A program made the position numbers and the translations under genes. The notes beneath the pieces were generated by a model. That model was given only the letters and a program-made list of their open reading frames with translations. It ran no database searches and had not been told where the DNA came from. A stretch of 64,000 nt of DNA from positions 62,001-126,000 of IMG/VR virus record IMGVR_UViG_3300035698_029839. One strand, written 5' to 3'. Origin of the DNA: a virus. Shown here piece after piece: positions 55,510 through 59,251 of this stretch. Each line of letters opens with the position of its first letter. The stretch's first letter is position 1.

Positions 55510-56328
55510 ATGACCAAAGTAGGAATTATAGGTTATGGAATTATAGGAAAAGCAGTATTAAAAATGTTTAAGGACAAAGTAGAACTTTGTGTTCATGATA
55601 TAAATATTTCTACTGATGATAAAATATATTTAAATATGGTTGGAATAGAATATTCTGATAAGGAAGAAATTAATAGTTGTGATATTGCTTTTGTTTGTGT
55701 CCCTACCCCACATAATAAGTATGATGGCTTGGATATGTCTATTGTTGAAAGTGTTATAAAAGAGTTTAATCCAGGAATGTTTGTTATATGTTCTGCTTTA
55801 CAACCTGGCACAGCAGATATTTTAATGAATAAATATGGAAAGAAAATAGTTGTACAGCCAGAATATTTTGGAGAGACAACGAATCATCCTCTTACTAATT
55901 TATCTCAAAATCCATTTATGATTTTAGGCGGTAAAAATGAAGATGTTGATGAAGTCATAAAACTTTATCAAAAAGTTTATAATGCTAATATCAGAATTAG
56001 AAAGGTGACAGCTTTAGAAGCTGAAGTGATTAAACTTTCTGAGAATAGAGCTATAGCATATAAGGTTGCTCAATGTCAAGAATTGTATGATGCTTGTAAA
56101 AATTCTAAGGTAGATTATGAAACTATTAGACAAGCTGTTTATGGGGATGACCCAAGATTTAATTTATGGTGGACTTTTGTTTATGAAGATAACAGAGGTA
56201 TGAATAGTAAGTGTATTCCTAAGGATGTTTACGGGTGGTATAGGTGGGCAGATGATTCAGGAGTTAATCCACGATTAACTGAAGCCTTATTAGATTATAA
56301 CCACAGTTTAGTAAAGAAAGATGAGTAA
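55510..56328 (+). CDS. UDP-sugar dehydrogenase-family protein (intein-free)
   Basis: A 272-residue member of the UDP-glucose/GDP-mannose dehydrogenase family, which oxidises a sugar's C6 to an acid in two NAD steps. G-I-I-G-Y-G-I-I-G opens the NAD domain. V-P-T-P-H and Q-P-E-Y-F-G-E-T follow, then K-L-S-E-N-R-A-I-A-Y-K. The nucleophile is C235 in N-S-K-C-I-P-K-D-V. The C-terminal UDP-binding domain is absent (about 390-450 residues is usual). It is a paralogue of the next, intein-broken gene. ATG with GGAG. Confidence 0.8.
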   Translation: MTKVGIIGYGIIGKAVLKMFKDKVELCVHDINISTDDKIYLNMVGIEYSDKEEINSCDIAFVCVPTPHNKYDGLDMSIVESVIKEFNPGMFVICSALQPGTADILMNKYGKKIVVQPEYFGETTNHPLTNLSQNPFMILGGKNEDVDEVIKLYQKVYNANIRIRKVTALEAEVIKLSENRAIAYKVAQCQELYDACKNSKVDYETIRQAVYGDDPRFNLWWTFVYEDNRGMNSKCIPKDVYGWYRWADDSGVNPRLTEALLDYNHSLVKKDE

Positions 56329-57421
56329 TATGAAAGATACTATTGGAGTAATTGGTTGCGGTTTTGTGGGGAAGGCAGTTGTAAAAGGTTTCGAGCAATT
56401 TGCAGATGTTAAAATCTATGATACGGATGAAAAAAAATCAATACATGATTTTAAAGAAGTAGTAAATTGTGATTTTGTTTTTATATGTTTGCCTACACCA
56501 ATGATATCATCAGAAGGAGGAAGAGCTAATTTATCAATACTTGAGAAATGTATGGAAGATATTAGTAATGTAGAAAATAGAAATAAAGATTCTATTTATG
56601 TTATTAAATCGACAGTCCCAATTGGGACAACAAAAAGATTTGTATCTCAGTATAAAAATTTGCGTATAGTTCATAATCCAGAATTTCTAACTGCACGTTC
56701 TGCTATAATAGATTTTATTTGTCCTGCAAGAAATATTGTTGGTGCAGATTGGGGACGTGATGGCAAACCTGTTCAGGATTTATTAATAGATAGATTTCCA
56801 GGTACTCGTTGTATAGCTATGACATCTGAAGAATCAGAAACGGTTAAATATATGGCAAATTCTTTTTTAGCAACAAAGGTTATATTTTTCAATGAAATGA
56901 GATTGCTAGTTGATAAGAAAAATTTAGACTGGGATAGAGTCATAAGTGGAGTTATGTCAGATGGTAGGATAGGAACTTCTCATTATCAAGTACCAGGACA
57001 TGATGGGGACAGGGGTTTTGGTGGATTGTGTGTTTTACCTGATGCTAAAGTTAGTGTGAGTAGTAATTTTTGTTACTTCCCAGAATTTTTAAATGATGAA
57101 GATAGTAGCTATATGAGAAGTCATGCTTATTCTAATAGGGAAATAAGAATAGAAGATTTATATGACGAATTTAAAGATAGAAAGAAATTTCATTTTTTGT
57201 TAATACAATCTTGCAATGATAAAATAGAAGAAATTGAAGATAAATATATCAGAGATGTGACTGTTAGGGATATAGATGAAGAAATTTATTGTTTTGAAAC
57301 TTCAAATGGTTTGTTTCGTTGCACATCTAATCATTTAATGCCTGTCGAAAGACAAGGAAAAATAATTATTATTCCTGCAAAAGAAATAAAGGAAACGGAT
57401 TTGCTTTTCTCGAAAGTATAA
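56321..57421 (+). CDS. ugd: UDP-sugar dehydrogenase N-half fused to N-intein
   Basis: A 366-residue chain. Residues 1-236 are the N-extein: an NAD-binding G-V-I-G-C-G-F-V-G, C-L-P-T-P, K-S-T-V-P-I-G-T-T, H-N-P-E-F-L, and an end in G-D-R-G-F-G-G-L. C237 starts the N-intein (C-V-L-P-D-A-K-V), and the frame ends in TAA. The rest of the enzyme is encoded at 58221-58523 with the matching C-intein. The product should be inactive alone, because the nucleophile Cys lies in the other half. It overlaps the intact paralogue by 8 bases. A second ATG at 56330 could be the true start. Confidence 0.88.
   Translation: MSNMKDTIGVIGCGFVGKAVVKGFEQFADVKIYDTDEKKSIHDFKEVVNCDFVFICLPTPMISSEGGRANLSILEKCMEDISNVENRNKDSIYVIKSTVPIGTTKRFVSQYKNLRIVHNPEFLTARSAIIDFICPARNIVGADWGRDGKPVQDLLIDRFPGTRCIAMTSEESETVKYMANSFLATKVIFFNEMRLLVDKKNLDWDRVISGVMSDGRIGTSHYQVPGHDGDRGFGGLCVLPDAKVSVSSNFCYFPEFLNDEDSSYMRSHAYSNREIRIEDLYDEFKDRKKFHFLLIQSCNDKIEEIEDKYIRDVTVRDIDEEIYCFETSNGLFRCTSNHLMPVERQGKIIIIPAKEIKETDLLFSKV
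57029..57421 (+). other. N-terminal half of a split intein (130 residues)
   Basis: It starts at Cys237 with C-V-L-P-D-A-K-V (block A). Block B is near the end (C-T-S-N-H-L-M-P-V, carrying the T-x-x-H step). Then come A-K-E-I-K-E-T-D and a stop. No endonuclease domain follows in this frame. With the 48-residue C-part it makes a 178-residue split mini-intein. Confidence 0.88.
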
Positions 57422-57456
57422 TGGATAAACAGGTTTCTTAAAATACTGGATAGAAA

Positions 57457-58224
57457 ATGTTAATAGAATATTTATCAGAAAAAATTAATACAAAAACGAA
57501 TATAAGGTTCAAATGTGATCAGTGTGGAAACTTATATATTAGGAATAATAAACCATATATAAATATGAAAAAAAGTATTTATTATGATAAGGATTATTGT
57601 TGTTTATGCTGGAGAAAAATTTTAAATAATCGTCCTGAATATAAAAAGAATATGAGTATATCTATACGGAAGATGTATGAAGATCATCCAGAGATAAGAA
57701 GTAAAATTTCTAAAACTTTGAAAAAAAATGGGGCAAATATAGGGAATAAAAATGGGATGAAACAAATTAAAGCAAGAATAAAGGCATCGATGACAAGAAA
57801 AAAAAAGTTTTTAGATCCAGTTTTTAGAAAAGCTCATTCTGATATGATTAAAAAGGCGTGGGCAGATGGTAAATTTGATGGAGTTAGAGTTGGGCAGTGT
57901 AAATGGCATGAATATAAACATTCTAATGGGAATGTTTATAAAGTTCAGGGAACATGGGAGCTAGCATTTATAAAATGGTTAGATGAAAATAATTTGAAAT
58001 TTAAATGCCATAGAGGAAGAATTCCATACAGAATTAAAGGGGAAAATAGAAATTATTATCCAGATTTTTGGGTTGATAAATGGGATGCTTTTATCGATGT
58101 AAAGTGTAGATATTTTTATGATATAAGTAAGAATAAGTTTAAAGCTATAAAAAAAAGTAATCCAAATATAAATATAAAAATTTTATTTAAAAAAGATTTA
58201 TTAAAATTAGGAGTTGTTTTGTGA
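57457..58224 (+). CDS. Free-standing homing endonuclease in the gene break (PD-(D/E)XK/Vsr type)
   Basis: A 255-residue protein. The N-terminus has a cysteine group (C20-x2-C23, then C-C-x2-C). The middle has basic helices with repeat-like K-x-S/M-x-x-x-K units, often DNA-binding. The C-terminus has W167-E168, P202-D203-F204 and D214-V-K216, a PD-(D/E)XK/Vsr-like site. It lies in a different frame from both intein halves. In-frame stops at 57439 and 57451 separate it from the N-half. It probably cuts the uninterrupted ugd gene and so spreads the broken allele. Its stop overlaps the C-half GTG. Confidence 0.85.
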   Translation: MLIEYLSEKINTKTNIRFKCDQCGNLYIRNNKPYINMKKSIYYDKDYCCLCWRKILNNRPEYKKNMSISIRKMYEDHPEIRSKISKTLKKNGANIGNKNGMKQIKARIKASMTRKKKFLDPVFRKAHSDMIKKAWADGKFDGVRVGQCKWHEYKHSNGNVYKVQGTWELAFIKWLDENNLKFKCHRGRIPYRIKGENRNYYPDFWVDKWDAFIDVKCRYFYDISKNKFKAIKKSNPNINIKILFKKDLLKLGVVL

Positions 58225-58364
58225 AAAAAATAAAAATTAATAAAATAAAAAAAGAAAGCTATAAGGGTAAAGTTTATAATCTTGAATTAGAAACAGAAAA
58301 TTTTGATACTGATGGAGATGATTTGTTCTGGATAGAGCAGGAAACAGGAATTGTTACTCATAAT
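58221..58364 (+). other. C-terminal half of a split intein (48 residues)
   Basis: It spans from the GTG start to the terminal Asn at 58362-58364, just before the TGC of Cys+1. The V-Y-N-L-E-L-E-T-E-N-F and V-T-H-N-C motifs are diagnostic. Its start is coupled to the endonuclease gene. Confidence 0.9.
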
Positions 58365-58523
58365 TGCTTTAGTAAAGATATTAATTCTTTAATTGATACC
58401 ATGGAAAAGGAAGGTCTTGATCCATTGGTTTTAAAAGCAGTATGGGAACAAAATAAAAGAGTTAGAAAAAAATGGGACTGGGCCGATGAGTCTTCAGCCG
58501 TTTTAGGGGAGGAAAAGTCATGA
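58221..58523 (+). CDS. ugd: C-intein fused to UDP-sugar dehydrogenase C-half
   Basis: A 100-residue chain. Residues 1-48 are the C-intein: G-K-V-Y-N-L-E-L-E-T-E-N-F is block F and G-I-V-T-H-N48 is block G with its terminal His-Asn. Residue C49 is the +1 nucleophile and begins the C-extein (C-F-S-K-D-I-N). Fused to G-F-G-G-L it restores G-F-G-G-L-C-F-S-K-D, the dehydrogenase active-site motif. The spliced enzyme would be 288 residues, like the 272-residue paralogue. GTG start overlaps TGA of the endonuclease (GTGA), and AGGAG lies eight bases before it. Confidence 0.9.
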   Translation: MKKIKINKIKKESYKGKVYNLELETENFDTDGDDLFWIEQETGIVTHNCFSKDINSLIDTMEKEGLDPLVLKAVWEQNKRVRKKWDWADESSAVLGEEKS

Positions 58524-59251
58524 GTGTTGTAAGGGGGGTTATATTAGCAGGTGGACATGGGAAGAGACTTTATCCTATGACTAAGGTTATAAATAAGCAT
58601 TTATTGAATGTTTATAATAAACCCATGATTTATTACCCGATAGAGACTATGATTAATGCTGGGATTGATCAAATTATGATAGTAACAGGGGGAAATAATG
58701 CAGGTAGTTTTTTGGAGCTTATTGGGAATGGGGAAGAGTTCGGATTAAAAGAAATGCACTATTCTTATCAAAAAGGAGCAGGAGGTATAGCGGAAGCTTT
58801 ATCTTTAGCAGAGAATTTTACGGCTGGAGATAAGTTTGTAGTTATTTTAGGAGATAATATACTAGAAAAAAGTATTAAGCCTTATGTGGATAATTTTAAA
58901 TGTCAACAAGGAGGAGCAAAAATACTTTTAACTAAGTCTATGACTCCAGAACGTTTTGGGGTAGCGGAGATTGACGATAATAATAATGTTACTTGTATAG
59001 TTGAGAAGCCACGAGAACCTAAAAGTGACAGTATAGTTATTGGCGTATATATGTATGATGGAGAAGTTTTCGAAGCTATTAAACAACAACAACGTTCTGA
59101 CAGAGGAGAATTAGAGATTACTGATGTGAATAATTATTATATAGAAAAGAGTAAGCTAACAAGTGATTTTATTGATGGATGGTGGACAGACGCTGGGACT
59201 ATTCCTTCTCTATTTAAAGCCAATGCGTTACTAAAGGATAATAATGAGTAA
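58520..59251 (+). CDS. rmlA: RmlA-type sugar-1-phosphate nucleotidyltransferase
   Basis: A 243-residue enzyme of glucose-1-phosphate thymidylyltransferase type. L-A-G-G-H-G-K15-R16-L-Y-P-M-T-K is the NTP loop. P-M-I-Y-Y-P-I, G-G-I-A-E-A-L, V-I-L-G-D-N, E-K-P and D-G-W-W-T-D-A-G-T are all standard. It is short (usual about 290), lacking the final regulatory helices. It begins a dTDP-sugar set with the next two genes. SD GAGGAAAA, ATGA overlap. Confidence 0.87.
   Translation: MSVVRGVILAGGHGKRLYPMTKVINKHLLNVYNKPMIYYPIETMINAGIDQIMIVTGGNNAGSFLELIGNGEEFGLKEMHYSYQKGAGGIAEALSLAENFTAGDKFVVILGDNILEKSIKPYVDNFKCQQGGAKILLTKSMTPERFGVAEIDDNNNVTCIVEKPREPKSDSIVIGVYMYDGEVFEAIKQQQRSDRGELEITDVNNYYIEKSKLTSDFIDGWWTDAGTIPSLFKANALLKDNNE

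What the first reader, a model, noticed from the sequence alone, without database searches (positions are those of the whole stretch)
56321..58523. A UDP-sugar dehydrogenase gene broken into two by a split intein
Seen directly: 56321-57421 ends with a recognisable N-intein (block A from C237, block B T-x-x-H). 58221-58523 begins with a C-intein (V-Y-N-L-E-L-E-T-E-N-F, V-T-H-N, then C). Joined, the exteins give G-F-G-G-L-C-F-S-K-D, the dehydrogenase active-site motif. The halves are in different frames, with 799 bases between. Known: 'fractured genes' of this kind, with split inteins and endonucleases between halves, were reported from environmental phage-type DNA by Dassa and colleagues (2009). 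I know of no UDP-glucose dehydrogenase example, but cannot search.
Basis: partly seen in the sequence, partly recalled or inferred. Interest (0 to 1): 0.92.

Follow-up and report, generated by a model that had tools for sequence, protein, structure and literature searches.

The report
Sugar dehydrogenase split by mobile intein
A large virus (probably a phage) carries a sugar-nucleotide dehydrogenase gene cut in two exactly at its catalytic cysteine by a split intein with a DNA-cutting-enzyme gene in the gap, and related virus contigs show the same cassette both inside and outside this gene, so the way such mobile elements break genes becomes testable at one site.

Summary
An N-half (236 aa dehydrogenase + 130 aa N-intein) and a C-half (48 aa C-intein + 52 aa dehydrogenase) join without a scar at GFGGL|CFSKD, so the catalytic cysteine is the +1 splice nucleophile. 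The 799 bases between encode a 255 aa zinc-finger endonuclease with a T7-endonuclease-I-like PD-(D/E)XK nuclease domain.

This is not one odd locus. About 20 IMG/VR contigs hold the same three-part cassette at the same codon, and 14 more hold it at the equivalent codon of a paralogous dehydrogenase. Cassette parts are inherited together and partly apart from the host gene, as homing predicts (window and L018: exteins 35-39% identical, endonuclease 66%).

The same endonuclease family also sits as a free-standing gene directly after intact, intein-less copies. There 18 of 19 copies have an altered active-site motif, against 6 of 67 without it. This suggests that the endonuclease targets the intein site and that altered motifs are resistant; the association is strong, but not significant on few phylogenetically independent pairs.

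The kind (fractured genes, Dassa 2009) is known. The host enzyme, nuclease type and series of states appear new. Splicing and cleavage are untested.

The parts
56321..57421 (+). N-half gene, 366 aa: N-extein of UDPG/MGDP dehydrogenase fused to N-intein
   Evidence: AlphaFold model pLDDT 81.5, best PDB match Cj1441 UDP-glucose dehydrogenase 7kws, E 7e-16
56321..57028 (+). N-extein, 236 aa: NAD-binding domain (PF03721) and most of the central domain (PF00984), ends GFGGL
57029..57418 (+). N-intein, 130 aa: Cys1, block B T-S-N-H
   Evidence: C1, T99, H102 invariant in A5; Pfam Intein_splicing 2.3e-5 for the reconstituted intein
57457..58224 (+). endonuclease gene, 255 aa: N-terminal CxxC zinc finger, middle NUMOD3-like region, C-terminal T7-endonuclease-I-like PD-(D/E)XK nuclease (E168, PD203, D214-x-K216)
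   Evidence: Pfam Phage_endo_I 1.5e-5; profile to T7 endonuclease I 1m0d 4.6e-7; 38 invariant columns in 10 loci; model pLDDT 83
58221..58523 (+). C-half gene, 100 aa, GTG start overlapping the endonuclease stop (GTGA), AGGAG upstream
   Evidence: same overlap in L018, L021, L023, L024, L026
58221..58364 (+). C-intein, 48 aa, ends GIVTHN (His-Asn)
   Evidence: His177 and Asn178 invariant in A5
58365..58520 (+). C-extein, 52 aa, starts with the catalytic Cys (TGC 58365-58367): CFSKD...
55510..56328 (+). intact tandem paralogue (272 aa) of the same dehydrogenase family, odd motif GMNSKCIPKD, no intein
58520..59251 (+). nucleotidyltransferase (RmlA-like); its ATG overlaps the C-half stop, so halves, endonuclease and this gene form one tightly packed cluster

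Best explanation
A mobile three-part cassette (N-intein / endonuclease gene / C-intein) has inserted at the catalytic-Cys codon of a short viral sugar-nucleotide dehydrogenase gene. The three genes are packed head to tail and are probably co-transcribed. The two halves are translated separately, the intein halves associate, and they splice in trans to leave a 288 aa dehydrogenase whose catalytic Cys is the +1 splice nucleophile. The endonuclease cuts intein-less copies of the gene at or near that codon during co-infection, and repair copies the whole cassette in (homing). Shown by sequence: anatomy, scarless junctions, recurrence, co-inheritance of cassette parts, related free-standing copies with altered motifs. 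Inferred: co-transcription, splicing, cleavage, homing.
For: Exact junction and all splice residues. Intein homology. T7-endonuclease-I-like nuclease. Same cassette in 21 loci of class A and 14 of class C. Class C joined exteins align through the site to the intein-less gene of isolated Synechococcus phage Bellamy (AGMGDGGACHPRDNIALRWM in both). Split inteins form one clade (SH-aLRT 99). In class A pairs the correlations of identity are Nint-HEN 0.79, Cint-HEN 0.78, Next-Cext 0.81, but Next-HEN 0.54. dN/dS of the endonuclease 0.08-0.21 where defined. Related endonuclease next to intact genes: altered motif in 18/19 against 6/67 (Fisher 1.5e-12), within one clade 14/15 against 4/9 (p 0.015).
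Against: No splicing or cleavage data. The window's own halves score below the curated Pfam and NCBIfam intein cut-offs when scanned alone. The Fisher tests ignore relatedness; only 5 independent pairs exist on supported branches (same way 4.2 on average, opposite 0; sign test cannot reach 0.05). Co-conversion of the downstream extein with the endonuclease is only a weak trend. Window motif CFSKD departs from the usual CFPKD. dN/dS is higher for some intein halves (up to about 0.7, short stretches).
Confidence: 0.86

Rival explanations
1. Sequencing or assembly frameshifts have broken one contiguous intein gene that carries an inner endonuclease.
For: The three ORFs lie in three different frames; no raw reads are available.
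Against: The same break with its own starts and stops recurs in about 20 contigs of many metagenomes, including an identical locus in two of them (L148/L150). The C-half start overlaps the endonuclease stop by exactly 4 bases in several loci. Stops close each frame at the ends of the three ORFs.
Confidence: 0.02
2. The halves are a decaying relic: the intact paralogue next door (55510-56328) does the work and no splicing occurs.
For: Intact paralogue present; window exteins are diverged and carry CFSKD.
Against: All splice residues and the expected dehydrogenase catalytic residues are kept; joining restores the Pfam domain score; relatives show purifying selection on exteins and endonuclease; the paralogue itself has the odder motif (GMNSKCIPKD).
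Confidence: 0.08
3. The split has been kept as a regulator of enzyme assembly rather than as a selfish element.
For: The enzyme cannot be whole before splicing; tight gene packing.
Against: The cassette is found in diverged hosts and in a second enzyme type, with partly independent inheritance, and with a decayed endonuclease in L033/L173: behaviour of a mobile element. No evidence for a regulatory signal.
Confidence: 0.04

Closest known systems
Fractured genes of Dassa et al. 2009 (doi 10.1093/nar/gkp095; text not held, recalled from memory)
   Same: Conserved enzyme gene broken by a split intein with a free-standing endonuclease gene between the halves, mostly in phage DNA
   Different: As I recall, the hosts there were DNA synthesis and repair enzymes and half the endonucleases were Vsr-like. 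Here the host is a sugar-nucleotide dehydrogenase, the nuclease is T7-endonuclease-I-like, and the same nuclease family is also seen free-standing next to intact target genes.
Contiguous inteins in UDP-glucose dehydrogenase (allele 'udp' in Halobacteria, PMC4071816)
   Same: Host enzyme family; in my genome hits the insertion is at the same catalytic Cys
   Different: Contiguous, most about 450-490 aa; they fall outside the split clade
Collaborative homing: F-CphI and the psbA intron of cyanophage S-PM2 (PMC6083498; reviewed in PMC2988022)
   Same: A free-standing, Holliday-resolvase-like endonuclease specific for the gene in which a self-splicing element sits
   Different: There a group I intron and an Endo VII-type nuclease; here a split intein and a T7 endonuclease I-type nuclease, with free-standing and inserted states in one nuclease family at one gene
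Split PolB intein with HNH endonuclease in jumbo phage MIJ3 (PMC6892783)
   Same: Split intein plus endonuclease ORF in a phage
   Different: DNA polymerase host, HNH nuclease

Membership tests
Fractured gene (Dassa type) | conserved enzyme reading frame broken in two | tested here: met
Fractured gene (Dassa type) | N- and C-intein halves at the break with complete splice residues | tested here: met
Fractured gene (Dassa type) | free-standing endonuclease gene between the halves | tested here: met
Fractured gene (Dassa type) | Vsr-like (EDxHD) endonuclease (frequent there as I recall, not defining) | tested here: not met
   nuclease domain matches T7 endonuclease I and Pfam Phage_endo_I
Fractured gene (Dassa type) | halves splice in trans | not testable with these tools
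   needs expression
UDP-glucose dehydrogenase | NAD-binding and central domains PF03721 + PF00984 above cut-off | tested here: met
   68.9 and 73.9 bits
UDP-glucose dehydrogenase | C-terminal UDP-binding domain PF03720 | tested here: not met
   absent in the joined protein and in intact viral homologue L139; hence called short viral form, substrate uncertain
Homing endonuclease | cuts intein-less allele at or near the insertion site | tested here: inconclusive
   only indirect: altered site in 18/19 intact genes that sit beside the endonuclease
T7 endonuclease I-like PD-(D/E)XK nuclease | profile match and catalytic E / PD / (D,E)xK | tested here: met
   whole-protein Foldseek hits were weak (best E 0.02)

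The most novel reading that the evidence does not exclude
One gene shows many steps of gene fracture by collaborative homing in nature. A free-standing endonuclease sits beside an intact dehydrogenase whose active-site motif has changed to resist cutting. The same endonuclease family has joined a split intein at that codon and spread, also into a paralogous enzyme. Elsewhere the endonuclease has decayed, or has gone and left only the altered motif (L225, L240, L270). Selfish-element pressure would then have changed otherwise near-invariant active-site residues of a metabolic enzyme.
Probability: 0.55. Interest if true: 0.85.

Novelty: new variant of a known kind. Interest (0 to 1): 0.74.

Why it matters
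It extends fractured genes from DNA metabolism to sugar-nucleotide metabolism, adds a family of about 24 natural split inteins (useful for protein engineering) and a likely new homing-nuclease type. It also offers one site where free-standing, inserted, decayed and lost states of the same element can be compared, which makes the long-debated origin of split inteins and the collaborative homing model directly testable.

Tried and rejected
Frameshift or assembly artefact: rejected by recurrence. Vsr-like identity of the window endonuclease: rejected, T7 endonuclease I profile matches. Common origin with the endonuclease of the DnaE fracture in the same genome: no significant match. A clear co-conversion tract around the free-standing endonuclease: only a weak trend, not claimed. 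Single-sequence scan of viral contigs with the window endonuclease found nothing; the profile of ten did. The C-half in phage records: no match. No UGDH fracture found in isolated phages. Foldseek of the whole endonuclease was uninformative beyond the PD-(D/E)XK class. Two terminase models found nothing in G000, so the phage lineage is unknown. Dassa 2009 could not be read; statements about it are from memory. A B-centred rescan added few loci: L299 (intact gene, altered GFGLSCLPKD, broken endonuclease) fits the pattern; L300-L304 and L315 are rearranged.

Full report
Observation. The window is bases 62001-126000 of a 297,710-base virus record. ORF 56321-57421 encodes 236 aa of a UDPG/MGDP dehydrogenase followed by 130 aa starting CVLPDAKVSV and holding CTSNH; ORF 58221-58523 (GTG) encodes 48 aa ending GIVTHN followed by 52 aa starting CFSKD. 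The 799 bases between carry a 255 aa ORF, 57457-58224. N-half, endonuclease and C-half lie in three frames; the endonuclease stop overlaps the C-half GTG (GTGA), and the C-half stop overlaps the next ATG. The cluster also holds an intact paralogue (55510-56328) and RmlA-, RmlD- and RmlB-like genes.

Is it an intein in a dehydrogenase? Joined, the exteins give 288 aa that align with no gap at the junction to a 287 aa intact viral homologue, L003 (GFGGSCFVKD). The central-domain score rises from 48.8 and 17.5 bits for the halves to 73.9 for the joined protein. The N-half model (pLDDT 81.5) best matches UDP-glucose dehydrogenases in the PDB. The window halves are weak against intein models alone, but the family profile matches solved inteins, MJ0781 2jmz at 1.6e-12 and the split NrdJ-1 intein at 2.2e-5, and all nine members tested match Pfam Intein_splicing, best 6e-10. 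Cys1, block-B Thr and His, and the final His-Asn are invariant. The enzyme lacks the UDP-binding domain PF03720, as does the intact viral homologue L139, so it is a short viral form and its substrate is uncertain.

The gene in the gap. Ten homologues from the same position align with 38 invariant columns. The C-terminal domain matches T7 endonuclease I (1m0d, 4.6e-7) with E168, P202-D203 and D214-x-K216 in place; the N-terminus has a CxxC zinc finger and the middle weak NUMOD3 similarity. The AlphaFold model (pLDDT 83) gave only weak Foldseek hits, led by PD-(D/E)XK nucleases such as Bax1.

Recurrence. A degenerate DNA pattern for V-x-H-N-C-F-x-K-D found 14 viral contigs. Ten besides the window have the full arrangement; L033, found with a second pattern, has it with the endonuclease reduced to a scrap (as L173). 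The endonuclease profile found 126 viral relatives, of which 80 loci were kept. They fall into classes. A: fractured dehydrogenase, 21 loci with the window. B: endonuclease directly after an intact, intein-less dehydrogenase, 21 loci. C: the same cassette in a longer paralogous dehydrogenase at GMGDGGA|CHPRDN, 14 loci. E: other or distant contexts, 25 loci. Near-identical loci count separately here. For class C an intein-less gene exists in an isolated phage, Synechococcus phage Bellamy, identical over AGMGDGGACHPRDNIALRWM. In cellular genomes a pattern for the same site gave 76 hits, at least 60 of them contiguous inteins in bacteria and archaea. Split inteins A and C form one clade (SH-aLRT 99) apart from the contiguous ones.

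Mobility. Window and L018/L111 exteins are 35% and 39% identical, but N-intein 54%, endonuclease 66%, C-intein 71%. Over 136 pairs, cassette parts correlate with each other (0.78-0.79) and exteins with each other (0.81), but N-extein with endonuclease only 0.54. The endonuclease tree needs repeated switches between classes A and B. In close pairs the endonuclease is under purifying selection (dN/dS 0.08-0.21).

Target site. Intact viral genes with the endonuclease beside them nearly all have an altered form of the near-invariant motif G(F/Y/W)GGxC(F/L)PKD: 18 of 19, against 6 of 67 without it (Fisher 1.5e-12); within one clade 14/15 against 4/9 (p 0.015). The one exception, L210, carries a divergent endonuclease. 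Three genes with altered motif and no endonuclease (L225, L240, L270) have no remnant after the gene. A later find, L299, has a broken endonuclease and an altered motif. Caveat: only five independent pairs on supported branches, 4.2 the same way on average and none opposite, too few for significance. I read this as resistance of the endonuclease's own genome at the intein insertion site; that is inference. The L210 reading is after the fact.

Comparison. The arrangement is that of fractured genes (Dassa 2009; cited in PMC10448857 and PMC12350094; text not held). Differences: host enzyme, nuclease type, and the free-standing state next to the intact target gene. The last is what collaborative homing predicts; this is described for the psbA intron of S-PM2 with F-CphI, another Holliday-resolvase-like enzyme (PMC6083498; PMC2988022). 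Paper searches combining intein with UDP-glucose dehydrogenase found the halobacterial allele but no split case; the library held is partial.

Verdict. Anatomy and recurrence are certain; trans-splicing very likely; homing likely; resistance reading plausible and testable. Known kind, new variant.

Noticed in passing
L009:5679-9685 (G000:C1:33679-37685): Second fractured gene in the same virus: DnaE-type DNA polymerase III alpha, N-half ending in an N-intein (CLAKDTPIL), 286 aa zinc-finger endonuclease-like ORF of another family, C-half starting with a C-intein (VVHN|SHAAG). The same C-half also holds a contiguous mini-intein.
   Followed up: partly
L009:3123-4532 and 5679: The N-terminal third of the same DnaE (PHP domain) is a separate ORF, with no intein halves seen at that break and a 106 aa ORF in between.
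   Followed up: no
L011:2364-5978; L009:16264-18153; G000:C1:47553-48629: Further contiguous inteins in this virus: topoisomerase I (with LAGLIDADG), a cysteine-rich protein (YkgJ-like by eye), and a UvrD-like helicase by eye. The genome is unusually rich in inteins.
   Followed up: partly
L123-L129, L132-L136, L120, L122: The same split intein and endonuclease cassette in a longer paralogous dehydrogenase (GMGDGGA|CHPRDN); the intein-less gene is in Synechococcus phage Bellamy.
   Followed up: yes
L031:292-2073: Viral dehydrogenase with a contiguous intein, LAGLIDADG-like by eye, at the same catalytic Cys.
   Followed up: partly
L173:3492-3716 (L033 contig): Split intein with the endonuclease gene reduced to a scrap: a decayed state.
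   Followed up: partly
L131:1-1477; L300:3221-4550: Endonuclease gene flanked on both sides by scraps or copies of the dehydrogenase C-extein, as if left by a failed or rearranged insertion.
   Followed up: no
L003:4432-5226: Endonuclease ORF with resolvase-like nuclease domain two genes upstream of an intact dehydrogenase with altered motif CFVKD.
   Followed up: no
L011:6041-6931: HNH endonuclease gene directly after the intein-bearing topoisomerase I gene.
   Followed up: no
G000 whole record: No terminase large subunit found with Pfam PF03237 or phrog_2, so lineage and completeness are unclear.
   Followed up: partly
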